Part shown: piece by piece, positions 1,536 through 21,807 of the stretch | Position numbering within the stretch: position 1 is the stretch's first letter | How the letters are laid out: every line of letters starts with the position of its first letter | From: a virus | Direction: 5' to 3' (one strand) | Virus record (IMG/VR): IMGVR_UViG_3300017751_000198 | Span: 1-25,504 of that record | Length of the DNA: 25,504 nucleotides | The notes under the pieces: generated by a model | The model's database searches: none | What the model was told of the DNA's origin: nothing | The model's input: the letters and a program-made list of their open reading frames with translations, nothing else | Translations under genes and position numbers: made by a program

Positions 1536-4238
1536 ATGAAAAAAATCTTATTTATTGCCCCCCATTTATCTACAGGAGGATTACCACAATATTTAACTAA
1601 AAAAATAGAACTTATTAAAGATGAATTTGATGTTCATCTTATTGAATGGGTAGATTGTACTGGGGGAAAATTAGTAGTACAACGAAATAAACTTTTAGAT
1701 TTAGTAGATAATCATAAATTCTTTACATTAGAAGAAAATAAAGAAGAATTATTTTCAATAATTGATAAAATCAACCCAGATATTATTCATTTAGAAGAAA
1801 TACCTGAATATTTTATGGATGATGTTATATCAAGAAAACTATATTCAACAGATAGAAATTATTTTTTAATAGAAACATCCCATGACTCATCAATGGATAC
1901 AAATAATAAACTATTCTTCCCAGATAAATTTATGTTTGTATCAAATTGGCAAATTGAGCAGTATAAAAACATAGATATACCTAAAATACTAGTTGAATAT
2001 CCCATTGAATATATCCCCAGACCTAATAGAGAACATGCGTTAAAACGTTTAAATTTAGATCCTTCTAAAAAACATATTTTACATATTGGTTTATTTACTT
2101 CAAGAAAAAACCAAAAAGAATTTTTTGAATATGCTAAAGCTTTACCTGAATATGAATTTCATAGTGTAGGAAATCAAGCAGATAATTTTAAATGGTATTG
2201 GGAACCCTTAATGAAGGAAAAACCTGATAATTTAACATGGTGGGATGAAAGAACGGATGTTGAGAATTTTTATCAATCAATGGATTTATTTTTGTTTACA
2301 TCTAGAGGAACAGCTAATGATAAAGAAACAATGCCTTTGGTTATTAGAGAAGCTTTATCCTACCAAATTCCTCAATTATTATATAATTTAGAAGTTTATC
2401 AAAATTATTTTGAAGATTATGATACAATCAATTATTTAGATTTTAATGATTTTAATGAAAATGTTAAATTAATTAAAGATCAATTTAATAGTTCTGCTGA
2501 AGTTTTTGAAGAAGAAGAAGCATATGTGGTATGTACTTATCCAAAAACACAAGCTGTAATAGATACTACAATTGAATGTATTAAATCTTTAAGAAAAAAT
2601 AGTAATAGAAAAATTATTATATCATCCCATTGCCCCGTACCCAAAGAACTACAGGATATGGTTGATTATGTTTTTTACGAAAAAAATAATTTATTAACAA
2701 AACATACTTTTTATTCTGGATATTGGATGTATGGGGGTCAATATGATACCCATGTTAATTTAAAAGGGGAAGATAATGATAGATATCATGGCCCTGCTTG
2801 TTATACCTCATTTTACAATCCAGCTACATTTGCTAAAGGGTTAGGAATTGAAAAATTATATTATATTAATTTTGATTATCTCCTTAAGGACAGTAGTTAT
2901 ATAGATTACATATCCCAAAAATTAAATACTCATGATACTTTTTTTGGTGAGTTTGAAGCACAAGAAGGCAAATGTTATTATACTTATTTTTTTGCAGCTA
3001 AACCAGAAGCAATTTTAAGACATTGTCATTTTATAGAAACTGAAAACCAATATAATAGTCTTATGAATAAGTATGGGGCTGAATCTAATGGTATAGAAAA
3101 TCTATATTATCATATATTTAAACATAATATTAATAATTATATAGAACCTAGAAAAAAATTCGAATCCGATGCTGAAAAATATTTTGATTTTGAAGATTAT
3201 TCAATGGTTGAATATTATACTATTCTTCCCACAGATGTAAATAATCATTTTTGTCCTTGGATAACTATCTCAAATGCTAAAGAAAGTAAAGATATTTATT
3301 ATACTGTAGAAAAAAATGGGGAAATTATTATTAATAGATTACTAGAAGTTAGAGGAAAATATCATTTTTGGGATTTAGTAAAATATGATTTAGAAGATAT
3401 TTTTACAGTTACTTTTGATGTTAGAGATACAGTAACGGGGGAAACAGTAAAATATCACAAATTTGAATTAAATAAAGAATATTTTTTAAATATAATGCCT
3501 AATAATGGTATGTTTAATTGGAAAGGAGATAGAATTAATTATAATCCTAAAATTAAATTAATGCATTTGGTTACTGAACCCGATACAAATGAAAAAGAAA
3601 TTCGTTCAGTAGAAAATATTAAAGAATTTTGTCAATTAACAGGTATTAAATATGAACAAAGAATAAATAAAATCTGGACTGATTTACCTCCAAAAGATAC
3701 TTGTAATAGACCAGATGATGTTCAAACCAAACCAGGACATTATAAATTAGCTCCAGGACATTATGGGTGTTATAAAGCCCACACAAATGCTATTTTAGCT
3801 AAAGATAATAAAGAATATGATTACATATTAATTTTTGAAGGTGATGTAATTATAGATTCTTCATTTAATGAATTGACAGAATCATTAAATCGTTTTAGTA
3901 AATTAGCTCAAGATTATGACCAAGATATTGTGGGATTTGGAAACCCATATAAAAATAGAAATTTAAATGGTCCTAAAATCGAAGATATATTTACTAATGT
4001 TACCCCATTTATTCCTGCTCAATCTTATTTAATTAATAATAATAAGTTAAATTTAATCCAAAATAAAATAAAAAATACTAAATGGGATGCTTTTGATATG
4101 TGGGTATGTAATGTAGCTCAATTAAAAGTAAGCACTGCTGAGAAAATATACACTAAACATATACCAGGATTTAGTATTATAGAACAAGAATTTAAGGGAA
4201 TGGACGAAAATAGTCCTGAAATTTATACAACAATATGA
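1536..4238 (+). CDS. Three-part glycosyltransferase (GT4-like, unknown middle, GT25-like)
   Basis: A 900-aa cytoplasmic protein with no signal peptide or membrane segment. Residues 1 to about 310 look like a GT-B retaining glycosyltransferase: the start KKILFIAPHLSTGGLPQYL matches the GT4 nucleotide-sugar loop, and ETMPLVIREAL carries an E-x7-E motif at E264 and E272. A middle region (about 325-560) begins VVCTYPKTQAVIDTTIECI and contains YYINFDYLL, resembling a GT-A-like glycosyltransferase fold without a clear family. The C-terminal part (about 675-900) resembles GT25, the LPS glycosyltransferase family: it starts KLMHLVTEPDTNEKEIRS, has GHYGCYKAHTNAILA near 745, and an FEGDV motif near 767 in place of the usual ED-D metal-binding motif. 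One polypeptide may thus add several sugars. Its stop overlaps the next start by 4 nt (ATGA), indicating coupled translation. Confidence 0.75.
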   Translation: MKKILFIAPHLSTGGLPQYLTKKIELIKDEFDVHLIEWVDCTGGKLVVQRNKLLDLVDNHKFFTLEENKEELFSIIDKINPDIIHLEEIPEYFMDDVISRKLYSTDRNYFLIETSHDSSMDTNNKLFFPDKFMFVSNWQIEQYKNIDIPKILVEYPIEYIPRPNREHALKRLNLDPSKKHILHIGLFTSRKNQKEFFEYAKALPEYEFHSVGNQADNFKWYWEPLMKEKPDNLTWWDERTDVENFYQSMDLFLFTSRGTANDKETMPLVIREALSYQIPQLLYNLEVYQNYFEDYDTINYLDFNDFNENVKLIKDQFNSSAEVFEEEEAYVVCTYPKTQAVIDTTIECIKSLRKNSNRKIIISSHCPVPKELQDMVDYVFYEKNNLLTKHTFYSGYWMYGGQYDTHVNLKGEDNDRYHGPACYTSFYNPATFAKGLGIEKLYYINFDYLLKDSSYIDYISQKLNTHDTFFGEFEAQEGKCYYTYFFAAKPEAILRHCHFIETENQYNSLMNKYGAESNGIENLYYHIFKHNINNYIEPRKKFESDAEKYFDFEDYSMVEYYTILPTDVNNHFCPWITISNAKESKDIYYTVEKNGEIIINRLLEVRGKYHFWDLVKYDLEDIFTVTFDVRDTVTGETVKYHKFELNKEYFLNIMPNNGMFNWKGDRINYNPKIKLMHLVTEPDTNEKEIRSVENIKEFCQLTGIKYEQRINKIWTDLPPKDTCNRPDDVQTKPGHYKLAPGHYGCYKAHTNAILAKDNKEYDYILIFEGDVIIDSSFNELTESLNRFSKLAQDYDQDIVGFGNPYKNRNLNGPKIEDIFTNVTPFIPAQSYLINNNKLNLIQNKIKNTKWDAFDMWVCNVAQLKVSTAEKIYTKHIPGFSIIEQEFKGMDENSPEIYTTI

Positions 4239-5191
4239 AAATATGTCATGTAGATCCAGGGTGTGGGTTAACCATACCTCCAAAAGATTGGGGGGCAATT
4301 GAAAAAATTATTTGGGAGTTTGAAGTAAATCAAACTGTACTAGGTCATGATTCAACCCATAAAATGGCAGCTGATATTCAACCTGGAGAATTTGACGTTG
4401 TACACTGCCATGTTGCTAATTTAGCAAATAGTTTAAAAGAAAGAGGTATTCCTTATATTTACCAATTACATGATCATCATGTTTTACATTATGGTAAAGA
4501 TTCTCATGTGTATAAAGAAAATTTAAAAGCAATTGAAGGATCATTAATATCCTTAATGCCTGCTAATTGGTTAGTAGATTATTTTAACCACCCAAAATGT
4601 GTTTATTTTTCCCATGGGGTTAATATTGATGAATTTTATCCTAAAAATATTAAAAAAACCACTCCTTCCAATCCAAAATTATTAATGTTAGCTAATAATG
4701 GTTTAGGTGGAGATCGTGCATTTGATAGAAAAGGATTTCAATTTGGAATAGGATTAGCTATGTTAAATAATTTAGAAATTACTGTAGCTGGACCTTCTAA
4801 TAATAAACACTTTTTTAATAAAAATCTTTGGACATTAAATTATCCAAAATTAAATTTAGTATTTGATACACCAAACACAGAATTATTAGATTTATACCAT
4901 GATCATGATATTTTTATCCATCCTACAATGTTAGAAGCAGGTCATCCTAATTTAACAATGTTAGAAGCTCTATCATCAGGTTTACCTGTTATTGCTGACT
5001 GGGAGATGGAAGTTGATCTATATGGGTGTTGGAGAGCACCCCGTGATGTATTTGAAATGGATAGAGGACTAAAAAATATATTAAATAATTGGGATTTTTA
5101 TTTTCCAAATTGTGTTAAAACAGCTCAAAATTTGTCTTGGTTAAACAGAACAAAAGATTTAATTAAAATTTATAAATTATATGCCTTATAG
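4235..5191 (+). CDS. GT4-family glycosyltransferase
   Basis: A 318-aa GT-B-type glycosyltransferase. The N-terminus MKICHVDPGCGLTIPPKDWG, followed by AIEKIIWEF, corresponds to the GT4 start in which a Gly-rich loop and GGAE-R-type helix contact the acceptor. DVVHCHVANLAN at about 53-64 and YIYQLHDHHVL at about 74-84 match the second Rossmann strands of the N-terminal lobe. The C-terminal signature is IFIHPTMLEAGHPNLTMLEA, then LSSGLPVIAD; the two conserved Glu (E234, E244) are two residues further apart than in the usual E-x7-E motif. It is short for the family (usually 350-400 aa). The start overlaps the previous gene by 4 nt and the end overlaps the next gene by 11 nt, so the three genes are one translationally coupled cassette. 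Sugar and acceptor are unknown. Confidence 0.78.
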   Translation: MKICHVDPGCGLTIPPKDWGAIEKIIWEFEVNQTVLGHDSTHKMAADIQPGEFDVVHCHVANLANSLKERGIPYIYQLHDHHVLHYGKDSHVYKENLKAIEGSLISLMPANWLVDYFNHPKCVYFSHGVNIDEFYPKNIKKTTPSNPKLLMLANNGLGGDRAFDRKGFQFGIGLAMLNNLEITVAGPSNNKHFFNKNLWTLNYPKLNLVFDTPNTELLDLYHDHDIFIHPTMLEAGHPNLTMLEALSSGLPVIADWEMEVDLYGCWRAPRDVFEMDRGLKNILNNWDFYFPNCVKTAQNLSWLNRTKDLIKIYKLYAL

Positions 5192-6887
5192 TTACGGAGA
5201 ATTTAAACAAGAAATAAAAAATCATATATCTTCAATATTACCTCAAACATCAAAAATATTAGATGTAGGTCCAGGTTGTGGTACTTATTCTCATCTACTG
5301 AAAGAATTTGGATATATTGTAGATTGTGTTGAAATATGGGAACCTTATATTCATAAGTTTAATTTAAATCAACATTATGATAATGTTCATTTAAGTAATG
5401 TTATGGATTTTGATATTACCCCTTATGAATATATTATAATGGGAGATATATTGGAACATCTTTCTTCTGAAGATGCTATTTTATTCTTAAAAAAGATAGA
5501 AAAAAATAAACAAAAAGTTTTAGTAGCTGTACCTTATGAATATAAACAAGGAGAACATGAAGGAAATATTTTTGAAACCCACCTTCAACCAGATCTAACC
5601 CCTGAAATAATGAAACTTAGGTATCCTAATTTAAAATTACTTTATGGAGATAATAAATATGGATATTACATTAATTATAATTTAAATATGAAAGATATAT
5701 TAATGCAAGAATATAATAATTTAACAAAAACTTTAAAAATACCACTATTTCCACAAAACCACATATTAATTAATTTTGTTAATGGTGCTAAAGTAGAAGT
5801 AAAAGGAGAAAATTCTAAAAAATATCAAATTCAATTTATTAATAAAAATAATAATAAAATTATTCATGAATCTACTATATCTAATAATATGTGGACTAAA
5901 ACAAATGTTCAATATTTTATAGATTATAAAATAATAGTTAAAGATTTAGAAGAAAATACAATAACAGAACATTATTTTAATGCTAAAGATAAAAAAGTTT
6001 ATATCCATTTTGCTTCAAAGGCATTAGGTGATACTATAGCATGGTTCCCATATGCTGAAGAATTTAGAAAAAAACATCAATGTGAATTAGTAGTATCTAC
6101 TTTCCATAATGAAATGTTTGAAGAAAATTACCCAAATATTAAATTTGTAAAACCCGGGGAAACACAATATGATTTATATGCTATGTATGAAGTTGGATGG
6201 CATTATAATGAAAATCAAGAAATAAATTATAATAAAAATATTTCTAATTTTAGAGAAATAGGATTGCAAGATTGTAGTTCAGAAAGTTTAGGAATTTCTC
6301 CTATAGAAATAAAACCTAAACTAACCTATAAAAATACAGGATCAACAGTAAAAGGTGATTATGTTGTGATAGCACCTCATGGTTCAGCTCATGCTAAATA
6401 TTGGAATTATGAAGGTGGTTGGCAAACTGTAATAGATTATTTAAATAATAAAGGGTATAAAGTAGTAATGATTACACAAGAACCTTTAGGAGATGAATGG
6501 CATGATTCTAAGTTAGGAGGTACTTTAACTGGAGTAATAGATAAAACAGGAAATTATCCTTTAAGTGAAAGAGCTAATGATATGATGAATGCTAAAGCTT
6601 TTATAGGTATTGGGAGTGGTTTAAGTTGGTTAGCTTGGGCTTTAAACACCCCTGTAGTAATGATATCAGGATTTAGTGAAGCTTATAGTGAATTTAAAGA
6701 CTGTGAAAGAATTTCATCTCCTAAAAATAAATGTAGTGGGTGTTTTAATAGAACACAATTGGATGCAGGTGATTGGGAATGGTGTCCTGATCATAAGGGG
6801 ACAAGTAGAATATTTGAATGTACTAAATCAATCACCCCAGATATAGTAATTGCTGCTATAGATCGTCAATTAGAAAAATTTTCCTGA
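5181..6887 (+). CDS. Methyltransferase fused to TibC/BAHT-type protein O-heptosyltransferase
   Basis: A 568-aa fusion. Residues 1 to about 165 are a class I methyltransferase: ILDVGPGCGTYSHLL (from about 24) is motif I, VDCVEIWEPYI is motif II and MGDILEHL precedes the catalytic region. Residues from about 190 match the bacterial autotransporter heptosyltransferase family (TibC, Aah): an N-terminal beta domain (INFVNGAKVEVKG and NNMWTKT), then YIHFASKALGDTIAWFPYAE (about 273), the GT9-like VVIAPHGSAHAKYWNY (about 393), and a four-cysteine cluster C518-x2-C521-x13-C535-x11-C547. In TibC a cysteine cluster of this kind forms an iron-binding finger needed for assembly of the dodecamer. Family members O-glycosylate Ser/Thr of autotransporter adhesins with heptose. 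In a phage the likely acceptor is a virion protein (inference). The start lies inside the previous gene (11-nt overlap). Confidence 0.8.
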   Translation: MPYSYGEFKQEIKNHISSILPQTSKILDVGPGCGTYSHLLKEFGYIVDCVEIWEPYIHKFNLNQHYDNVHLSNVMDFDITPYEYIIMGDILEHLSSEDAILFLKKIEKNKQKVLVAVPYEYKQGEHEGNIFETHLQPDLTPEIMKLRYPNLKLLYGDNKYGYYINYNLNMKDILMQEYNNLTKTLKIPLFPQNHILINFVNGAKVEVKGENSKKYQIQFINKNNNKIIHESTISNNMWTKTNVQYFIDYKIIVKDLEENTITEHYFNAKDKKVYIHFASKALGDTIAWFPYAEEFRKKHQCELVVSTFHNEMFEENYPNIKFVKPGETQYDLYAMYEVGWHYNENQEINYNKNISNFREIGLQDCSSESLGISPIEIKPKLTYKNTGSTVKGDYVVIAPHGSAHAKYWNYEGGWQTVIDYLNNKGYKVVMITQEPLGDEWHDSKLGGTLTGVIDKTGNYPLSERANDMMNAKAFIGIGSGLSWLAWALNTPVVMISGFSEAYSEFKDCERISSPKNKCSGCFNRTQLDAGDWEWCPDHKGTSRIFECTKSITPDIVIAAIDRQLEKFS

Positions 6888-9148: not shown

Positions 9149-11716
9149 ATGGCAGAAACATTAATTTCCCCAGGAGTACTAGCAAGAGAAAATGATCAAT
9201 CTCAGATTACTTCTCAACCTATACAAGCTGGTGCAGCATTAGTAGGACCTACAGTAAAAGGTCAAGTCAATATTCCAAAACTTATAACTACCTACAGTGA
9301 GTATCAAGCTAACTTTGGTACTACTTTTGATAGTGGATCTGACGAATATACATTTTTAACATCAATTTCAGCATACAATTACTTCCAAAACGGAGGTACT
9401 TCGTTAATTGTTACTAGAGTAGCTTCAGGTTCATTTAGTTCAGCTACCTCTTCAACAATTTTCAATGATCAAGAAACTGGAGATGTACTTTTAGGAACTA
9501 ATTTATTAGGATCTTGGACATCAGGTGGTGAAAATGGTGCTGCCTTTGAAAACACAGTAACCCCTTCTACAAGTGGAACTGGAACAGGAATAGTATTAGC
9601 AGTAACAGCTTCAAACGTAAATGGTAAATTAGTTGACACAGCAGATGCTTTATTAGGATCTATTACAACTAATACAACTACTGCAGGAGCCGGTTCTTAC
9701 TCTGTTAATTTAACAAATGGATCCGGAACAGGTGCCGTTGCTACAGTAGTAGTAACAGGAACAACTGCTCCAACAGTTACTGGAATTACTGTAACTACAA
9801 GCGGATCTGGATATATTGCTACAAATGTATTAACAATCCCAGCAGGTGCTTTAGGAACTGGACAGTTAATAACTGGTGATGATATTTTAGCAGAAACCGC
9901 AGCTACTCCAATTGGAAACGTAACAGGTCCATTTACAGTAGCACAATCCTCAACATCAGGAACAGGTACAGGAGCAACAATAGCAATAACGGGTGATGGA
10001 GCCAATGCTTTATCAGCAGTATCCGTTGTAGATATAGGTACTGGGTATGTTGTAAATGACACTATTACAATAACAGCTGCAGATTTGATTACAGCTGGTT
10101 TTGCGGGTGCCGCAGGTGATTTAGTAGTAACAGTTTCTGCAGGAATGTTACAAGACTCAACAGCAGTAGAAATTACATTAATTGCTGATGATATATTTGT
10201 TGAAACAGTAGGAGTACAAGTTACTACAGCTGGATCAGGATATGCAGTAGGAGATACATTAACAGTAGCAGCAGCAGACATGGGTAACCCATCAGCTGCC
10301 TTAGTATTAACATTAGTAGATGCAGATATTTTAGATGCAAATGCTTTCACATTAGAAACAATTGGTGAAGGAATAATTATGAATAGTGATGGTGCTTTAG
10401 CTTCAAACGGAGTTTTAACAAATGGTACATCTGATAATATTAGATGGGAAATTGTTTCACCAAACACATCATCGGGTACATTTAGTGTAATTATTAGACA
10501 AGGTAATGATACTACAAGAGCAAAATCAGTACTTGAAAGCTTTAACAATGTATCATTAGATCCAAAAGCTTCAAATTATATTTCAAGAATAATTGGAGAC
10601 CAAAAACAAGTAGTTAGAGGATCTGGAACGGATGTTTATTTACAAACAAGTGGTTCTTATGCTAATGCTTCAAGATATGTAAGAGTAAAATCAGTAGCAT
10701 ATAAAACACCAGATTATTTAGATAATGCTGGAAATGCTAAATCTGTATACACAGCTTCAATTCCAGTAGCAGCTTCAGGTGCATTTGGAGATGCAGTAGG
10801 TACTATTTTAACAGGAACTGGTAATTATTACCAATACATTGATGGTAATGATACTCAAGGATTAAAAGATGGTAATTATACAACAGCATTTAATTTATTA
10901 GCTAATAAAGATGATTACAAATATAACATTATTTCATCCCCAGGATTATATCAATCAGGATACTCTTCAATATTAAACACTTTAATTTCAAATACTGAAA
11001 ATAGAGGAGATAATATTGTAGTATTAGATCTTGAACCATATGCTTCATCAATAACTGCAGTAACATCAACAGCAACTGCTCAGGATACTTCATATGCAGC
11101 TTCATATTGGCCATGGTGTATGGTAACTGATCCAGATTCAGGACAAAGAGTTTGGGTTCCAGCTTCAACATTAATTCCAGGTGTGTATGCTAATAATGAT
11201 AGAACAGCAGAAGCATGGTTTGCACCAGCAGGTATTAATAGAGGTGGATTAGGTCAAGTACTTCAAGCTGAAAGAAAATTAACCCAAGCTAATAGAGATA
11301 CATTATACACAGGTAAAGTTAACCCAATAGCAACATTCCCAGGTAGAGGAGTTGTAGTATTTGGTCAGAAAACATTACAAAATCAAGCAAGTGCTTTAGA
11401 TAGAGTAAATGTTAGAAGATTATTAATCGCACTTAAAAATTATATTTCACAGATATCTGATAACTTAGTATTTGAACAAAATACAGCAGCTACAAGAAAT
11501 ATATTCTTAAGTCAGGTTAACCCATATTTAGAATCAGTACAACAAAGACAAGGTTTATACGCGTTTAAAGTTGTAATGAACGATTCAAATAATGGACCCG
11601 ATGTAATTGATAGAAATGAATTAAGAGGTGCTATATACATTCAACCAACTAAAACGGCAGAATTTATTTACCTAGATTTCAATATTCTACCAACAGGAGC
11701 TGAATTTCCTGCATAA
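9149..11716 (+). CDS. 18: Contractile tail sheath protein (gp18-like) with a repeat-bearing insertion
   Basis: An 855-aa tail sheath protein, about 200 residues longer than T4 gp18 (659 aa). The start AETLISPGVLARENDQSQIT and the following AALVGPTVKGQ are the classic sheath N-terminus, whose arm hooks the neighbouring subunit. The C-terminal domain is also standard: NPIATFPGRGVVVFGQKTL, then VNVRRLLIALKNYI and RGAIYIQPTKTAEFIYLDF. Residues about 140-395 are an insertion of low-complexity beta-rich sequence with three G-(S/T)-G-Y repeats, probably a domain on the outside of the sheath. The sheath polymer surrounds the tube and contracts at infection. It is followed 53 nt later by the tube gene, the usual order. 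The only unclear point is the role of the insertion. Confidence 0.95.
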   Translation: MAETLISPGVLARENDQSQITSQPIQAGAALVGPTVKGQVNIPKLITTYSEYQANFGTTFDSGSDEYTFLTSISAYNYFQNGGTSLIVTRVASGSFSSATSSTIFNDQETGDVLLGTNLLGSWTSGGENGAAFENTVTPSTSGTGTGIVLAVTASNVNGKLVDTADALLGSITTNTTTAGAGSYSVNLTNGSGTGAVATVVVTGTTAPTVTGITVTTSGSGYIATNVLTIPAGALGTGQLITGDDILAETAATPIGNVTGPFTVAQSSTSGTGTGATIAITGDGANALSAVSVVDIGTGYVVNDTITITAADLITAGFAGAAGDLVVTVSAGMLQDSTAVEITLIADDIFVETVGVQVTTAGSGYAVGDTLTVAAADMGNPSAALVLTLVDADILDANAFTLETIGEGIIMNSDGALASNGVLTNGTSDNIRWEIVSPNTSSGTFSVIIRQGNDTTRAKSVLESFNNVSLDPKASNYISRIIGDQKQVVRGSGTDVYLQTSGSYANASRYVRVKSVAYKTPDYLDNAGNAKSVYTASIPVAASGAFGDAVGTILTGTGNYYQYIDGNDTQGLKDGNYTTAFNLLANKDDYKYNIISSPGLYQSGYSSILNTLISNTENRGDNIVVLDLEPYASSITAVTSTATAQDTSYAASYWPWCMVTDPDSGQRVWVPASTLIPGVYANNDRTAEAWFAPAGINRGGLGQVLQAERKLTQANRDTLYTGKVNPIATFPGRGVVVFGQKTLQNQASALDRVNVRRLLIALKNYISQISDNLVFEQNTAATRNIFLSQVNPYLESVQQRQGLYAFKVVMNDSNNGPDVIDRNELRGAIYIQPTKTAEFIYLDFNILPTGAEFPA
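9571..10330 (+). repeat. Imperfect beta-repeats in the sheath insertion (protein level)
   Basis: Three related units are visible: GSGYIATNVLTIPAGAL (Tyr at residue 222), GTGYVVNDTITITAADL (Tyr 300) and GSGYAVGDTLTVAAADM (Tyr 365), 78 and 65 residues apart. Each is preceded by a Gly/Thr-rich strand and followed by an Asp-rich turn ending D-I-(L/F). The DNA copies have diverged, so this is an old protein-level repeat rather than a recent tandem duplication. Confidence 0.6.
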
Positions 11717-11769: not shown

Positions 11770-12258
11770 ATGGCAGTATTAGATCCAAACGAAATATTTT
11801 TCACAGCATTTGAACCAAAGGTAGCAAATAGATTTGTGATGTATGTTGACGGATTCCCATCATATATCATTAAAGGTGTAAGTGGATTAGGATTCGCACA
11901 AGATGAAATTGTACTTAATCATATCAATACTTATAGAAAAGTAAAAGGTAAATTAAGATGGAATGACATTACAATGCAATTATTTGATCCAATTACTCCT
12001 TCTGGTGCTCAAGCAGTGATGGAATGGGTTAGATTACATTATGAATCAGTAACTGGTAGAGCTGGTTACTCTGATTTCTACAAGAAAGACTTAACTATTG
12101 ATGTATTAGGTCCCGTAGGTGATGTAGTTTCAGAATGGATTATTAAAGGTGCATTTATCAAAGACGGTTCATTTGCTGATATGAACTGGGATTCTGATGG
12201 TGAAGCACAAAACATTGATTTAACAATTGGAATGGATTACTGCGTGTTAAATTTCTAA
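11770..12258 (+). CDS. 19: Tail tube protein (gp19-like)
   Basis: A 162-aa tail tube protein, practically the length of T4 gp19 (163 aa). Family features: the opening NEIFFTAFEPKVANRFVMYV, the segment SYIIKGVSGLGFAQDEIVLN that begins the tube beta-barrel, and KVKGKLRWNDITMQLFDPIT. The C-terminal strand DLTIGMDYCVLNF ends in an aromatic residue as in the family. Hexameric rings of this protein stack inside the sheath and form the DNA channel. It lies 53 nt after the sheath gene and is followed by a strong terminator, so sheath and tube form one unit. Codon use is typical of the highly expressed structural genes here. Confidence 0.93.
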   Translation: MAVLDPNEIFFTAFEPKVANRFVMYVDGFPSYIIKGVSGLGFAQDEIVLNHINTYRKVKGKLRWNDITMQLFDPITPSGAQAVMEWVRLHYESVTGRAGYSDFYKKDLTIDVLGPVGDVVSEWIIKGAFIKDGSFADMNWDSDGEAQNIDLTIGMDYCVLNF

Positions 12259-12360: not shown

Positions 12361-13107
12361 ATGCAAGAATTAAAATTTCCTACTGAACAAGTAGAATTAC
12401 CTTCAAAAGGTTTAGTCTATCCTAAAGACAATCCTTTATCTTCTGGGGTCATTGAGATGAAATATATGACAGCAAAAGAAGAAGACATCCTTACAAATCA
12501 AAACTACATTAAAGATGGAACTGTTATTGATAGACTATTAAAGGCATTAATTGTAACAAAAATTAATTATGATGATTTAGTAGTTGGAGACAAAAATTCA
12601 ATTATGGTTGCTGCTAGAGTTTTAGGATATGGTAAAGATTATACATTTTCTTATGAAAATGAAACAGTAACAGTAGACCTATCAGAATTAGAACAACGAT
12701 GGATTAATGAAAGTGAATTAATTGAAAAAAATACTAACCAATTTTCATTTACTTTACCTCACTCTAAAGCTGAGATTACTTTTAAACTATTAAATAATAG
12801 AGATGACAGAGCAATTAAATCTGAAGTAAAAGGTTTAAAAAAATTAGATAAAAAATCATCTCCTGAGTTATCAACTCGTTTAAAGCATATGATTACATCT
12901 ATAAATGGGGATAGTGAAGTAAAAATTATTAGAGAATTTGTAGATAATTATATGTTGGCTAGAGACTCTAGAGCATTTAGAGAGCATGTAAAAACATTCC
13001 AACCTGATATTGATTTAACCTTTAACCACGTGAGTAGTGACGGCAGCGAAAGGGATGTTACCCTTCCGATGACCGTCAACTTTTTTTGGCCTGACAGCGA
13101 CTTATAG
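12361..13107 (+). CDS. 26: gp26-like T4_baseplate-family protein; probable tail assembly chaperone (E/G type)
   Basis: A 248-aa protein starting LKFPTEQVELPSKGLVYPKD, then MKYMTAKEEDILTNQNYIKD and RLLKALIV. This is the signature of the T4 base plate protein family PF12322 (T4 gp26 and relatives). It lies between the tube and the tape measure, the position of the E gene of P2 and the G gene of lambda, whose products chaperone the tape measure. Its last codons run through a T7 tract (13081-13087) and stop at TAG 13105-13107. A +1 or -2 shift on that tract would extend it into the frame ending at 13384, giving about 340 residues. The G+C-rich, structured 3' end (13030-13100) contrasts with the rest of the gene. 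The family is fairly certain; the chaperone role is inferred from gene order. Confidence 0.8.
   Translation: MQELKFPTEQVELPSKGLVYPKDNPLSSGVIEMKYMTAKEEDILTNQNYIKDGTVIDRLLKALIVTKINYDDLVVGDKNSIMVAARVLGYGKDYTFSYENETVTVDLSELEQRWINESELIEKNTNQFSFTLPHSKAEITFKLLNNRDDRAIKSEVKGLKKLDKKSSPELSTRLKHMITSINGDSEVKIIREFVDNYMLARDSRAFREHVKTFQPDIDLTFNHVSSDGSERDVTLPMTVNFFWPDSDL
13038..13078 (+). promoter_or_regulatory. Two-part RNA hairpin just upstream of the slippery T7 run
   Basis: Outer stem TGACGG (13038-13043) pairs with CCGTCA (13073-13078). Inner stem CG-A-AAGGG (13047-13054) pairs with CCCTT-C-CG (13061-13068), with one A-C mismatch, around the loop ATGTTA. The structure ends two bases before the T7 run. 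This is unusually G+C-rich for the genome, which points to selection on the RNA as well as on the protein. Confidence 0.55.
13078..13087 (+). other. Putative +1/-2 programmed frameshift site
   Basis: In the gp26 frame the codons are AAC TTT TTT TGG. tRNA-Phe on TTT (13084-13086) can re-pair with TTT at 13085-13087, giving +1 and entry at GGC 13088; a two-base backward slip on the same run gives the same frame. A -1 shift meets TGA at 13092 and is useless. The target frame is open only from 13073, after a TGA at 13070, and the gp26 frame closes at 13105, so the shift must occur in this short overlap. Confidence 0.6.
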
Positions 13108-13384
13108 GATCAATCTCTTCAAAACCATCCATGACATAGTTTATTATGGGCAGGGTGGTTACGATTGGAATACTGTTTACAGTATGCCTATATGGTTGCG
13201 AAGATTTACGTACCAACAGATCTATGAAGCAAGATCTGCAGAAGCAGAAGCAATGAAAAATGCTTCTAAAGGAAAGGGAACTAATTTTGATTTAAATAGT
13301 TCTACAAAAGATAAAATTCCTAAAGAAGCTTTACGATCAAAACCAACTTCCCCCAATTATGTTACGAAGGCATCAAAAAAATGA
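13088..13384 (+). CDS. Frameshifted C-terminal extension of the tail assembly chaperone (E'/T type)
   Basis: The frame is open from 13073 to TGA 13382-13384. Read from GGC 13088 it gives about 98 residues. The part before the first ATG (13184) looks like real protein: TYRINLFKTIHDIVYYGQGG then YDWNTVYSMPIWLRRFTYQQ. A run of aromatic residues followed by an MP-x3-R motif resembles second-frame segments of tail chaperones in other contractile phages. ATG 13184 would cut through this motif, giving a 66-aa product with no ribosome-binding context, so I read the region as the extension of the 248-aa protein. The tail end (about 13235 on) is Lys/Ser-rich and probably disordered. A single-base sequencing error in the T7 run would look the same. 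Confidence 0.65.
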   Translation, partial: GLTATYRINLFKTIHDIVYYGQGGYDWNTVYSMPIWLRRFTYQQIYEARSAEAEAMKNASKGKGTNFDLNSSTKDKIPKEALRSKPTSPNYVTKASKK

Positions 13385-13418: not shown

Positions 13419-15998
13419 ATGGCTGATCAGAAAGATATTCAAAATCAAAAAGATCTCAATAATGAGATGTCTCAGACTAAAACCCTAGAAGAACAAATTA
13501 TTGATCTTTTAGCGGAAAGAAGAGGTATTAATTCTGATGTACTTACAGATCAACAAAATTTAAATAATGTTCTTGCAGATCAGGTAAAGAACATGAGTTT
13601 TGAAATAGTTCAAAGAAAACAAATTAAAGATTTAAGTGCATCTGTTACTAAAATAGCAAACGATGCTTATTCTGTTAGTAAAGATCAATTAGGTCTTACT
13701 GAGACCAATGTTAAAATTGCAAAACAACAACAAACTTTAACTAAAAATATACTTCTTTTATCTCAACAAAGGGAACAATTATTAGATTCTATTAATGATG
13801 GTACAGCTACTGATGCTAAATTAAATGCTGATATAGCTCAATCAATTGCTGCTCAAGTTACAGAAGCTAAAAATCTTCAAAATCAACTAAAAAAAGTAGC
13901 AAAAAATTCTCAAACAATAAGTAAGAGTTTTGGGGTTAAGAGTTTTGGGGGGTTATCTGAAATTTCAAAAGCTATTCCAGGTTTAAGTAAGTTTAGTGGT
14001 CCTTTTGAAGAAGCTTCAGAAGCAGCTAGAAAACAAGCTCAGTTTAATTTAGAAAATTTTGGTACTACTAAAAAACTTAGTAAAGAAAACCTAAAAGCTT
14101 TAAAAACAGGAAAAGGCTTAGATGCTGATAAAATAAAATCCTTAGGATTAGAAGGAAAATTAATAGGCAAAAATGGAAAAATGCTCCAAGGAGCATCAGC
14201 CGCTGCAAAAGCAAAAACTTTAGGGTTAACTAAATCTATAGCTCCATTCATGGCCGGATTGAAATCTATAGGACCAATGCTTACTAAAGCTCTTGGACCT
14301 GTTGGTTTAATAATAGAAGCTGTAAATGCCTTGAAGGTTATTGACTCTGCATCAGGAACAACAGCAAAATCACTAGGAATATCAGCTGCAGAAGCAAGAG
14401 AATTAAATGCAGAAATGGCTGATGCTGCCTCTATGTCAGGAGACTTATTAGTATCATCTCAAGATGTAGTAAAGGCACAAGTTCAACTAAATAAGTTATT
14501 TGGAACATCTGTAAAGTTTTCAGGTGAATTTGCCGCAGAATTTGCAGAAATATCAGAAAAAACAGGACTATCATCTCATGCTATGGATGTATTTGCTGAA
14601 AAAGCCTTAATGAGTGGAACTTCTATTCAAAAACAACTTGAAAAAGTTCAAGCTGTTACAATGGAATTAAATGCTCAAAATGGTCTTTCAATAAGTGCTA
14701 AAGACATTCAAGAAGGTATTGGCGAAATGTCAGCTGTTCAAATGTTGAATAATAGAATGAATACCAAAGAAATGGCCAAACAGGTATTCAACGCTAAAAT
14801 GTTGGGTATTTCTCAACAACAATTAGAAGCTACCCAAAGTGGTTTATTAGATTTTGAAAGTTCAATTGCAGCTGAAATGGAAGCTGAACTATTAACAGGT
14901 AAACAACTTAATTTAGAAGGAGCTAGAGCAGCAGCATTAGCAGGTGATCAAGCTAAATTAGCAGCTGAATTAAGAAAAGAAGTAGGTACAGCAGCTGAGT
15001 TTGGAGCAATGAATGTAATCCAACAAGAAGCAATGGCCAAAGCATTTAATATGTCTAGAGAAGATATGGCTGCAATGTTAATAGAACAAGAAAAATTAGA
15101 AGCAGTAAAAGCAGCAGGTTTTGCATCAGCTAGTGATGCTCAAAAAATGTATAATAAAGCTTTAAAAGATGGTACTCTTACAGAAGATAAAAAGGCAAAA
15201 TTAGCAGAAGCAGGATTATTAGCCCAGTTTGAATCCGCAACTCAACAAGAAAAAATGGCGGCTGCTATGGATAAACTTCAAGATATATTTATACAATTAA
15301 TGGATGGTCTAGCTCCTATATTTGATGTTGTAATGGACGTTTTAGAACCAATATTTGCAATTTTAGGACCAATAGCTAAATTAATAGGTGATGTAATAGG
15401 GTTAGTTATGGGTGTATTACAACCTGCTTTAACAGCACTCTCAAATGCTTTTCAAAACATAGCAGATGGATTTACGGAGATTTTTGGGGGTATTGCAGAT
15501 GTAATTGTAGGTATTCTAACTTTTGATTTTAGTATGTTATTAGATGGTTTTAAATCTCTAATTAGAGGAGTATTAAAATTAGTGTTAATGCCTTTCCAAG
15601 CAATAACAGATTTAGTAGTAGGTGCCATTAATATGGTAATAAGAGGGGTGAATTACATCCCAGGAGTTGATATAACTGAAATTGAATCCCCAGATTTATC
15701 ATCAGAAGTAAATTCTTTAGTTGGTTTAGCAGATGGTGGTATCGTTCCTGCAACCCCTGGGGGTATTCCTGCCATTATTGGTGAAGGAGGTGAAGATGAA
15801 GTAGTAATGCCTTTAAGCAAACTCCCGGGTTTATTAGAAGGTGAAGGATCAAATAGGAATGGATCTAATACAAATAATGCTCAAATAGTAGGCTTATTAA
15901 AAGAATTAATATCTGCCGTGAAAGAAGGTGGTGATGTGATACTTGATGGAAATAAAGTAGGTAAATCACTAGCATTAGCAACTTCCAAAATGGGTTAA
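13419..15998 (+). CDS. Tail tape measure protein
   Basis: An 859-aa tape measure. Residues 1 to about 160 are a charged coiled coil (QKDLNNEMSQTKTLEEQIID onwards). A long Ala-rich helical region with Gly-rich breaks follows (about 165-620). A hydrophobic segment at about 628-750 (FDVVMDVLEPIFAILGPIAK and following) is probably the part that inserts into the host membrane. The C-terminal GLADGGIVPATPGGIPAIIG, then EGGEDEVVMPL, is the motif seen near the end of many tape measures. It fixes tail length; at the usual 1.5 angstrom per residue the tail would be at most about 130 nm. It follows the chaperone pair, as expected. No peptidase or lysozyme domain is visible inside it; that function is in the hub protein downstream. 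Confidence 0.9.
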   Translation: MADQKDIQNQKDLNNEMSQTKTLEEQIIDLLAERRGINSDVLTDQQNLNNVLADQVKNMSFEIVQRKQIKDLSASVTKIANDAYSVSKDQLGLTETNVKIAKQQQTLTKNILLLSQQREQLLDSINDGTATDAKLNADIAQSIAAQVTEAKNLQNQLKKVAKNSQTISKSFGVKSFGGLSEISKAIPGLSKFSGPFEEASEAARKQAQFNLENFGTTKKLSKENLKALKTGKGLDADKIKSLGLEGKLIGKNGKMLQGASAAAKAKTLGLTKSIAPFMAGLKSIGPMLTKALGPVGLIIEAVNALKVIDSASGTTAKSLGISAAEARELNAEMADAASMSGDLLVSSQDVVKAQVQLNKLFGTSVKFSGEFAAEFAEISEKTGLSSHAMDVFAEKALMSGTSIQKQLEKVQAVTMELNAQNGLSISAKDIQEGIGEMSAVQMLNNRMNTKEMAKQVFNAKMLGISQQQLEATQSGLLDFESSIAAEMEAELLTGKQLNLEGARAAALAGDQAKLAAELRKEVGTAAEFGAMNVIQQEAMAKAFNMSREDMAAMLIEQEKLEAVKAAGFASASDAQKMYNKALKDGTLTEDKKAKLAEAGLLAQFESATQQEKMAAAMDKLQDIFIQLMDGLAPIFDVVMDVLEPIFAILGPIAKLIGDVIGLVMGVLQPALTALSNAFQNIADGFTEIFGGIADVIVGILTFDFSMLLDGFKSLIRGVLKLVLMPFQAITDLVVGAINMVIRGVNYIPGVDITEIESPDLSSEVNSLVGLADGGIVPATPGGIPAIIGEGGEDEVVMPLSKLPGLLEGEGSNRNGSNTNNAQIVGLLKELISAVKEGGDVILDGNKVGKSLALATSKMG

Positions 15999-18828: not shown

Positions 18829-21807
18829 ATGAGTAATTTTTTGGGAAAACCATTTGATCCTTGGGTTAAAGAACAAATAGAATTAAGACAAGAATCTTTA
18901 GGAAAATATACTAATATCCCATCAAAAGATATCCAAAATTATACTACCAAAGCCCCTTTTTTGAGATTAGCTAGTTCTGTAAATTTAACTAATAAAGGAT
19001 CTGAAGGAAATGAGATAGATGATTCTGTACTTCAAAAATTAATAAGCTCTGGTATCAATAAAGATTTAATTTCAGGGGATCAATTAGCTAAAAATTTTAT
19101 TTTACAAGGAGGAGTAACTAATAGTGAAGGTAAAATACAGTCAGGATTAAATAAAGGTGGAATATTTGAAGGTGCTTATGGGTGGGGGGGAGTATCTAAT
19201 AATTCAAGAGGATATGTACCTATGCCTGGTATTACTGACGCTGACATAACTTACTATAATAATGGGGCACTAAGTAAAACTACTATTAATATAAAATGTT
19301 TTAGTAAAGAACAATTTCAACTAATAGATGTTTTATATTTAAGACCAGGCTATACTTTATTATTAGAGTTTGGGCATAGTCAATATTTAAAAAAAGATAA
19401 ACAAGGTAAGGTACAATTAGAGAATTTTCCAAATTTTTTAACTGACCCTATGAGTTTGATGCTTAAAGGAGAAACCAGTCAATATGATTTAATTACATCA
19501 ATTAATAAAACAAAATACCAACATAGCGGAAATTATGGGGGTATTTTTGGAAAAATTACTAAATTTAATTGGCAATTCAATCCTGATGGAAGTTATGACT
19601 GTCAAGTACAATTAACTTCTGTAGGTGATGTAGTAGAATCATTAAAAATTAATCTTACTACTCCTAAGTCTGTTGAAAAATCATTAGGGGAAACTATTGG
19701 TGGAGCTTTTAAAAAATTTTGGAATGTATTGACGACTGGAGGAGGAGGATCTTCTGTTTTAATAACAAATGCAGATAAAACAATAATTAATACTTTTTTA
19801 TTTGGAATATTTCAAGGTACCTCAAAATCTATTACCACTCCTCTTTCTAAAAAAAATGCAGGTTTTCAAGAATTAGAAATAAGCAATTTTAGGGATCATA
19901 AAGGTAAACCACCCCAACCTATTAAATATCCAAAAGGTCTTCTTTACAGAACTGGTATTACTTACCCCGAAGAAGAAAAATCTAGTAATCCTTTAATTTA
20001 TATTAAGTATGGAGCTTTTTTAGCTTTTATTCAATCTAATTTATTACTATATAACACAAAATTAAATACTCCTCAATTTACTTTTGATATGGATTTTCAG
20101 GATTTAGCTAACGATGACAATGTTATTCTTAGAATCCCAGGACAATTATCAACTGATCCTAGAGTATGTTTAATACCATATGAAAATTTTTCAATTGTTA
20201 GTGGAGGTGGGGGTACTATTGGGATGAGAGATGTTATAATTAATAGTTTATTAAAACAAACTGACTTTTTTTACAAAAATGAGCAATATTTAGGAAGACT
20301 AGGTAATATTATGGTTAGTACTACATATATTGCTGAAGTTTTGGATAGCATGAATACAGATGAAGAAGGAAGTATTTTATTATTTGAGTTTTTAAAAACC
20401 CTACAAAAAGGAATGATTGAAGCTACCGGGGGAATAAATAAATATGATTTAAGGATGAATCAAGAAGGTACAAAAGTACAATTTATTGAAGAAATCCCAC
20501 AAAGACTATCAAACCCACCTTCATCAACTGAGTACACTAGATTTAATGTTTTTGGGGTTAAAAGAGGAATAGAGGGTAGTTTTATTAGAGAAATTAATTT
20601 AACAGCTGATTTATCTAATGATTTTGCTACTATGATATCTATAGGAGCCCAATCTGATAGCAATCAACTTGGGGGAAATGCTACTTCATTTTCAAATTAT
20701 AACGCTGGATTAATAGATCGAATTATTCCAGAAAAAGTATCTTCTCCAGATATTGAAGAAAAACAAACAACCCAAAAAGTTTTTAAACCAGACCAATTAG
20801 CAAAAATTGTAAGTAAAGAAAAAAGTAATTATGATTCAATATACATGGATACTCAATTTAATTCTGAAGATATTTCTTCCTATAAATCAAACATGACTAC
20901 AGCTATTACTTTAGCTTTAGGTATACTAACTGATAGAAAATCTAAAAAACAAGCACAATTACAAGCCCCATTCTTCCTTCCTTTTAATTTATCTCTTACT
21001 ATGGATGGGTTAACAGGGATGAAATTATATCAAAAATTTCTCATGACAGATGATATACTCCCTCCTTCATATGAAAAAGATGGGGTTGACCTTCAATTAA
21101 AAGGTATAAACCATAAAATTGATACTAATGGATGGATAACATCTCTAGAAACTCTCTCAGTACCTGCAAATTCTTTAGCTCCAATTACACGACCACCCCA
21201 AATGGTAGCAGAAGATAAAGATGAAACAGCAACTTCATCACCCCTCCCATCTAGATCAATTACACCATCTGCAACTACTTTCCCTCAATCTGCTACAAGG
21301 GAAAATGCTATGTTAAAATCTTATAATCAAGTATTTGCTAGAGATCCTCAAGTGCCTAAGATGTGTGCTAGATGGACATACAATTTAGCTTTAAATTACG
21401 TTAGTTTCTTAAAAGGAGGACAACTAAAAAATCCTCAAACAGCTGCAGGTGGTAATGCAAAAGTGGATGTAAAATTTCACCTTAATTTAACTAAATTAGG
21501 TTATAAAAAAACAACTAGTACAGGTTTATCAAGAACAGAAGTTGGTAATTTAATCAAAAATGGAACGTGGGGTTATGGAGATGTAGTAGTTTATTGGGCT
21601 AATGATAAACCCACAAGTGGTAAAGATACCCATTATGTATATGGTCATACACAGATTTACACAGGAAAAATTAACAACTCAGGATGGGCATCATCAATGC
21701 AAGAGAATTATAATGCAAAAACAGGATTTGTGTATGGGAATCGAAAAAGTAATAACTGGAACCTATTAGTATTTAGAGCTCCATATGACGAAAAAGGAAA
21801 TGCTTAA
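18829..21807 (+). CDS. Baseplate hub protein (gp27/gpD-like) with C-terminal CHAP peptidase
   Basis: A 992-aa protein. Residues about 135-700 resemble the gp27/gpD hub fold: PMPGITDADITYYNNGALSK and TTINIKCFSKEQFQLIDVLY are followed by LRPGYTLLLEFGHS, the barrel pattern of the trimeric hub. A Pro/Ser/Thr-rich linker (about 780-830) precedes a C-terminal domain (about 835-992) with CHAP or NlpC/P60-type features: MCARWTYNLALNY with candidate nucleophile C846, GDVVVYW (917-923) and YGHTQIYTG with H940. T4 carries a lysozyme domain in gp5 at the needle; here a cysteine peptidase/amidase fused to the hub would open the peptidoglycan of the host. The third catalytic residue is not certain. It lies 4 nt after the LysM-like gene. 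Confidence 0.78.
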   Translation: MSNFLGKPFDPWVKEQIELRQESLGKYTNIPSKDIQNYTTKAPFLRLASSVNLTNKGSEGNEIDDSVLQKLISSGINKDLISGDQLAKNFILQGGVTNSEGKIQSGLNKGGIFEGAYGWGGVSNNSRGYVPMPGITDADITYYNNGALSKTTINIKCFSKEQFQLIDVLYLRPGYTLLLEFGHSQYLKKDKQGKVQLENFPNFLTDPMSLMLKGETSQYDLITSINKTKYQHSGNYGGIFGKITKFNWQFNPDGSYDCQVQLTSVGDVVESLKINLTTPKSVEKSLGETIGGAFKKFWNVLTTGGGGSSVLITNADKTIINTFLFGIFQGTSKSITTPLSKKNAGFQELEISNFRDHKGKPPQPIKYPKGLLYRTGITYPEEEKSSNPLIYIKYGAFLAFIQSNLLLYNTKLNTPQFTFDMDFQDLANDDNVILRIPGQLSTDPRVCLIPYENFSIVSGGGGTIGMRDVIINSLLKQTDFFYKNEQYLGRLGNIMVSTTYIAEVLDSMNTDEEGSILLFEFLKTLQKGMIEATGGINKYDLRMNQEGTKVQFIEEIPQRLSNPPSSTEYTRFNVFGVKRGIEGSFIREINLTADLSNDFATMISIGAQSDSNQLGGNATSFSNYNAGLIDRIIPEKVSSPDIEEKQTTQKVFKPDQLAKIVSKEKSNYDSIYMDTQFNSEDISSYKSNMTTAITLALGILTDRKSKKQAQLQAPFFLPFNLSLTMDGLTGMKLYQKFLMTDDILPPSYEKDGVDLQLKGINHKIDTNGWITSLETLSVPANSLAPITRPPQMVAEDKDETATSSPLPSRSITPSATTFPQSATRENAMLKSYNQVFARDPQVPKMCARWTYNLALNYVSFLKGGQLKNPQTAAGGNAKVDVKFHLNLTKLGYKKTTSTGLSRTEVGNLIKNGTWGYGDVVVYWANDKPTSGKDTHYVYGHTQIYTGKINNSGWASSMQENYNAKTGFVYGNRKSNNWNLLVFRAPYDEKGNA

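What the first reader, a model, noticed from the sequence alone, without database searches (positions are those of the whole stretch)
13073..13384. Probable +1 or -2 programmed frameshift joining a gp26-like protein to a downstream frame (E/E', G/T type)
The 248-aa gene ends at 13107, while a second frame opens at 13073 (after TGA 13070) and runs to 13384 with convincing protein sequence upstream of its first ATG (Y-rich segment, then SMPIWLRRFTYQQ). The overlap holds a T7 run, codons TTT TTT T. Only +1 or -2 reaches the second frame; -1 stops at TGA 13092. The pair lies between tube and tape measure, exactly where lambda G/GT and P2 E/E' use frameshifting, but those use -1. This gives the PF12322 (gp26-like) family a direct chaperone interpretation in this phage.
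Basis: partly seen in the sequence, partly recalled or inferred. Interest (0 to 1): 0.82.

Follow-up and report, generated by a model that had tools for sequence, protein, structure and literature searches.

The report
Frameshifted tail-assembly chaperone, +1 type
A gene of this phage makes a short protein and, when some ribosomes skip one base at a fixed run of T, a longer one; this looks like the helper pair that builds phage tails, and the unusual part is that the skip is forward (+1), at the same codons where cyanophage relatives slip backward (-1) and where T4 instead uses two separate genes.

Summary
ORF A (12361-13107) is followed by a conserved extension (13088-13384) that is open only in the +1 frame and has no start codon before 13184. 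Of 254 loci carrying ORF A, 253 carry the extension: 245 in the +1 frame and 8 in the -1 frame. The site is C/G_TTT_TTT_T. The second Phe codon is TTT in essentially all +1 loci with Phe-Phe, and the base before the run is C or G in 114 of 127 loci (24.6 expected). Variants (TTC_TTT_T, TTT_C, TTC_TTT_CGT) fit only a +1 slip of P-site tRNA-Phe on UUU_Y. They do not fit -2, nor transcriptional slippage on a long T run.

ORF A belongs to the T4 gp26/gp51 family (phrog_150; PF12322 in 35 of 45 relatives). The extension is homologous, through the cyanophage extension (-1 frame, T_TTT_TTC in 80 of 80), to the C-terminal part of T4 gp51. Best reading: a tail assembly chaperone, TAC-N/TAC-NC (G/GT-like), expressed by +1 programmed ribosomal frameshifting. 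TAC frameshifting is known, and T4's two-gene solution is published (Vladimirov 2022, not readable here). The new parts are the +1 site, its conserved motif, and the switch of direction within one family. No frameshift was measured.

The parts
12361..13107 (+). ORF A: short form (TAC-N / G-like), gp26/gp51 family, 248 aa
   Evidence: phrog_150 E=4.5e-10; 35 of 45 aligned relatives match PF12322; AF2 pLDDT 94, highest-probability PDB neighbour among rows shown is HK97 tail assembly chaperone 2ob9 (prob 0.38, E 1.7, not significant)
13080..13087 (+). shift site C_TTT_TTT_T; P-site codon most likely TTT 13084-13086 slipping to 13085-13087
   Evidence: conserved in 200+ loci; second TTT essentially invariant in +1 loci; base before the run C/G in 114/127
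13087..13089 (+). A-site sense codon TGG (TGG 88%, TAC 12% among +1 loci with TTTTTT)
13088..13384 (+). extension B in the +1 frame (T-like), 98 codons plus stop, read only after the shift
   Evidence: B HMM hit in 253/254 loci; no start codon before 13184; three-helix model, pLDDT 80; homologous to the cyanophage extension (E 1.8e-6) and through it to the T4 gp51 C-terminus (6.4e-10)
13092..13094 (+). TGA that closes the -1 frame just after the site
   Evidence: sequence
11770..12258 (+). tail tube protein (gp19-like), upstream neighbour
   Evidence: phrog_4542 1e-21, PF06841 1.6e-4
13419..15998 (+). tape measure protein, downstream neighbour
   Evidence: phrog_34082 4.7e-8, phrog_6090 2.8e-6

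Best explanation
This is the tail assembly chaperone locus of a contractile-tailed phage of the Flavobacterium phage immuto kind. Most ribosomes end at 13107 and make the short chaperone (TAC-N, 248 aa). A fraction slip one base forward while tRNA-Phe sits in the P site on TTT 13084-13086 and TGG waits in the A site. The tRNA re-pairs with TTT 13085-13087 and reading continues at GGC 13088. The product is a 340-aa form (TAC-NC) with a C-terminal helical domain. By analogy with lambda G/GT, the short form would coat the tape measure protein and the extension would bring in tube subunits; neither form should remain in the virion. Shown here: the frames, their conservation, the site motif and its variants, the homologies and the gene position. 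Inferred: that slippage occurs, its frequency, and the protein roles.
For: 245 of 253 loci have the extension in the +1 frame. Selection on the sequence changes phase exactly at the site: second-codon-position conservation moves from frame 0 to frame +1. FF at the site is TTTTTT in 128 of 133 +1 or near-+1 cases against 71 of 211 FF pairs elsewhere. The codon before the run ends in C/G in 114/127 (24.6 expected) and in T in only 3 (59 expected), which removes the extra T that a -1 tandem slip needs. A +1 re-pairing to UUU/UUC is possible at every +1 locus, while -2 is impossible in 13 and also in Streptococcus phage GXN1 (TTC TTT CGT). UUU_CGU is a proven +1 site in influenza PA-X (PMC3498833). 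Homologues with the extension in -1 (S-PM2 and 80 cyanophage-type loci, Atu_ph07, the LR756511 group) carry the canonical T_TTT_TTC at the same FF. The fusion profile aligns collinearly with T4 gp51 (E 1.5e-5).
Against: No protein or reporter data. No strong downstream RNA structure (mean z -0.4 to -0.8, control -0.5), so the stimulator is unknown. The same T7 in-frame motif also occurs elsewhere in the window without an obvious role (GAC TTT TTT TAC at 20266), so the motif alone is not sufficient. One relative (L267) has the extension in the -1 frame without a good -1 site. B alone does not match T4 gp51 directly (E 0.19-0.43), only through the cyanophage intermediate.
Confidence: 0.88

Rival explanations
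1. The same pair of products is made by a -2 ribosomal shift on the T run, as in phage Mu, giving one extra Phe.
For: T7 sites allow P-site re-pairing two bases back in 230 of 245 loci. The literature names phage Mu as a natural -2 case in the same kind of gene.
Against: TTC_TTT_TGG, TTC_TTT_TAC, TTT_CTA and TTC_TTT_CGT sites keep the extension in the same frame but do not allow -2 re-pairing of tRNA-Phe.
Confidence: 0.06
2. RNA polymerase slips on the T run and part of the mRNA has one base fewer or two more; ribosomes then read a fused frame normally.
For: Seven T's, eight in a few loci.
Against: The run is broken (TTTC, TTC, T3-T4 only) in at least 13 loci and in several isolate phages with the same architecture. 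An eighth T is strongly avoided (3 seen, 59 expected), the opposite of selection for polymerase slippage.
Confidence: 0.03
3. Two separate overlapping genes: the second ORF is translated from its own start.
For: In many relatives a start codon exists somewhere in the open +1 frame near or upstream of the site (86 of 139 dereplicated loci have ATG, GTG or TTG). Annotators call a short separate ORF in immuto and SP-15.
Against: 53 of 139 dereplicated loci, the window included, have no start codon before the conserved part. Homology of the extension begins exactly at the site. T4 gp51 is a single continuous protein containing both parts.
Confidence: 0.04
4. Assembly or sequencing error that split one gene.
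For: Homopolymer runs are error-prone.
Against: Same sequence in independent contigs L001-L003 and the same architecture in hundreds of records, including isolate genomes.
Confidence: 0.005

Closest known systems
Lambda G/GT and P2 E/E' tail assembly chaperones
   Same: Position between tube and tape measure; short form plus rarer C-terminally extended form; [quoted passage not shown]
   Different: Those use -1. No sequence relation to lambda or P2 proteins was tested here; the fold neighbour HK97 chaperone (2ob9) is only a weak hit.
T4 gp26 and gp51 (PF12322, phrog_150)
   Same: ORF A is homologous to both; the fusion A+B aligns over its length with gp51, and gp26 ends just after an FF at the same alignment position.
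   Different: T4 has two separate genes; here one gene would make both forms by frameshifting. The TAC reading of T4-like genes is published (Vladimirov, Gautam & Davidson 2022, known here only by title and citing papers).
Cyanophage S-PM2 gp26 with its 57-codon 'gp51' ORF
   Same: Same family, same position of the site, homologous extension.
   Different: Extension in the -1 frame with T_TTT_TTC; 80 of 80 related loci.
Influenza PA-X UCC_UUU_CGU and prfB CUU_UGA +1 sites
   Same: P-site UUU_Y (or CUU_U) +1 slip with a slow A-site codon.
   Different: Different genes; here the A site holds TGG or TAC, not a stop or a rare Arg codon (GXN1 has exactly UUU_CGU).
HSTV-2 (haloarchaeal myovirus) and phage Mu tail chaperone shifts
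   Same: Tail chaperone extension reached in the +1 frame (HSTV-2 'very likely +1'; Mu by -2; PMC5009743).
   Different: Not compared by sequence; no T7 site reported in the passages read.

Membership tests
T4 gp26/gp51 family (PF12322 / phrog_150) | Profile match | tested here: met
   phrog_150 E=4.5e-10 for the window; PF12322 in 35/45 relatives, not the window itself
Tail assembly chaperone with frameshift (G/GT type) | Gene lies between tube and tape measure genes | tested here: met
   same order in immuto, SP-15 and LIS04
Tail assembly chaperone with frameshift (G/GT type) | Two overlapping ORFs, second lacking its own start, conserved slippery site | tested here: met
Tail assembly chaperone with frameshift (G/GT type) | Direction -1 (lambda, P2) | tested here: not met
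   +1 frame in 245 loci; -1 frame closed at TGA 13092 in the window. Direction is known to vary among tail chaperones (-1, -2, +1), so it is not a defining feature of the wider class
Tail assembly chaperone with frameshift (G/GT type) | Both products made in a fixed ratio and absent from the virion | not testable with these tools
   needs proteomics
Tail assembly chaperone with frameshift (G/GT type) | Fold of known chaperones (HK97 chaperone, 2ob9) | tested here: inconclusive
   Foldseek rank 3, highest probability of the rows shown (0.38), E=1.7
T4 gp51 C-terminal part | Homology of extension B | tested here: met
   through the cyanophage extension: E 1.8e-6 and 6.4e-10; direct comparison not significant, 0.19-0.43; fusion match to phrog_150 extends past the site

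The most novel reading that the evidence does not exclude
A very old tail-chaperone gene has kept one Phe-Phe slip point while changing how its long form is made: backward slip at T_TTT_TTC in cyanophages and some jumbo phages, forward slip at C/G_TTT_TTT_T (or TTT_C) in the immuto-like clade and in Bacillus, Listeria and Streptococcus phages, and no slip but a separate long gene in T4. The forward site would work with a sense codon in the A site and no strong RNA structure, with the strict C/G before the run tuning direction.
Probability: 0.55. Interest if true: 0.65.

Novelty: new variant of a known kind. Interest (0 to 1): 0.5.

Why it matters
It gives a large natural series (245 +1 loci, 80+ -1 loci) in which the same codon pair appears to slip in opposite directions depending on one flanking base and the wobble positions. 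The control of shift direction can therefore be tested directly. It also links T4, once named as the exception for tail-chaperone frameshifting (PMC5009743), to the general scheme, and it corrects annotations: 'baseplate hub' plus 'hypothetical protein' in immuto, SP-15 and similar genomes is probably one chaperone locus.

Tried and rejected
Downstream or upstream RNA structure as stimulator: no clear signal against controls. Rfam over the window: nothing. PDB sequence search with A and B profiles: nothing convincing. Foldseek of the B model: nothing. SP-15 as query found only itself in viral contigs; an all-family alignment was too diverse to scan. My script picked a later TTT as the slip codon in L086 and L043; these are artefacts, their real sites being TTC TTT CGT and TTT TTT TGG. 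Papers: Vladimirov 2022 is not held. No paper describing the +1 site in Flavobacterium phages was found, but most subscription papers are missing from the library.

Full report
Observation. The frames, stops and T run are exactly as described. ORF A, 12361-13107, ends ...MTVNFFWPDSDL. In the +1 frame, open from 13073, GLTATYRINLFKTIHDIVYYGQGGYDWNTVYSMPIWLRRF... runs to the stop ending at 13384, with no ATG, GTG or TTG before 13184. Neighbours are a gp19-like tube protein and a tape measure protein.

Conservation. A first scan of IMG/VR gave 80 relatives of ORF A (60-100% identity). Seventy-nine contain a downstream second frame, always +1; L060 is cut off. After further scans 254 loci were compared: 253 had a hit to an HMM of the extension, 245 in the +1 frame and 8 in the -1 frame. 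The hits of the SP-15, GXN1 and LR756511 types to that HMM are weak (E 0.1-0.6), so their frames rest also on reading the sequence. Isolate phages with the +1 arrangement are Flavobacterium immuto, Microcystis Mel-JY01, Bacillus SP-15, Listeria LIS04, Streptococcus GXN1 and, by reading of the frames only (no HMM hit), Rhodothermus RM378.

Site. Among loci dereplicated at 80%, Phe-Phe at the site is TTTTTT in 128 of 133 cases outside the TTC TTC group, against 71 of 211 Phe-Phe pairs elsewhere in the same loci. The codon before the run ends in C or G in 114 of 127 (24.6 expected from codon usage for the same residues) and in T in 3 (59 expected). The next codon is TGG or, in about 12%, TAC. Counts are over related sequences, so they are not independent trials.

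Coding phase. Information content peaks at second codon positions of frame 0 upstream (-26, -20, -14, -8) and at second codon positions of frame +1 downstream (+20, +32, +44), changing at the site. Synonymous conservation is raised at the two Phe codons and in the dual-coding stretch after them.

Direction. Sites with TTC TTT TGG (L190, L194, L238), TTC TTT TAC (L193), TTT CTA TTC (L083), TTT CTT TGG (L018, L072, L081, L107, L108, L192, L197, L198) and TTC TTT CGT (GXN1) keep the +1 extension. All allow tRNA-Phe on UUU to re-pair one base downstream with UUU or UUC; 13 of the scored loci plus GXN1 do not allow -2. The same variants exclude transcriptional slippage on a long run as the common mechanism. 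UUU_CGU is the demonstrated +1 site of influenza PA-X (PMC3498833).

Homology and function. ORF A matches phrog_150, which also contains both T4 gp26 and T4 gp51; T4 gp51 is longer by a C-terminal part. The A+B fusion profile aligns with gp51 over its length (E 1.5e-5), and the PHROG match of the fusion runs past the site (43.7 against 40.4 bits for the window). Extension B against gp51 alone is not significant. Against the cyanophage extension it is (E 1.8e-6), and the cyanophage extension matches gp51 (E 6.4e-10). In S-PM2 that extension is annotated as a separate 57-codon gp51 and lies in the -1 frame after T_TTT_TTC; all 80 related loci share this. The LR756511 group and Agrobacterium Atu_ph07 are also -1 with T_TTT_TTC. 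A tree clusters the directions, with long branches making the deep order unsure.

Structure. ORF A folds with high confidence (pLDDT 94). In the PDB the hit with the highest probability among the rows shown is the HK97 tail assembly chaperone, but without significance. The extension is predicted as three helices.

Literature. A review states that tail chaperones use -1, -2 or +1 in different phages and names T4 as the exception (PMC5009743). PRFect (PMC10885494) reports, citing Vladimirov et al. 2022, that some T4-like phages carry a short gene and a separate long fusion gene. PMC12846349 mentions poly-T -1 signals in T4-like chaperone genes. I could not read the 2022 paper, so I cannot say whether this +1 group is in it.

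Verdict. It is a new variant of a known kind. The frameshift is inferred from conservation and has not been measured.

Noticed in passing
window 20266 and 2940: The same kind of in-frame run occurs elsewhere: GAC TTT TTT TAC at 20266 inside the 992-aa ORF and ACT TTT TTT GGT at 2940 inside a glycosyltransferase ORF. No second frame was looked for in detail; the motif alone is therefore not proof of shifting.
   Followed up: partly
L267 around 2690-2960: Relative with the extension in the -1 frame at AAT TTC TTT TGG CCC, where neither a good -1 heptamer nor the +1 frame fits; either a contig error or another way of reading.
   Followed up: partly
window 1536-6887: Three large ORFs with glycosyltransferase domains (group 1, family 25 and family 9) lie upstream of the tail genes; unusual cargo next to a tail module.
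   Followed up: no
window 9149-11716: Tail sheath protein of 855 aa, longer than usual, with a repetitive-looking stretch in the middle; the Pfam sheath domains match only in the C-terminal part.
   Followed up: no
L081, L084, L272: Public annotations split this locus: 'baseplate hub' plus a short hypothetical or 'gp51' ORF; these are probably one frameshifted gene.
   Followed up: yes
L083, L084, L086, L228 ORF A: Several relatives have two CxxC pairs (zinc-ribbon-like) in ORF A, which the window protein lacks.
   Followed up: no
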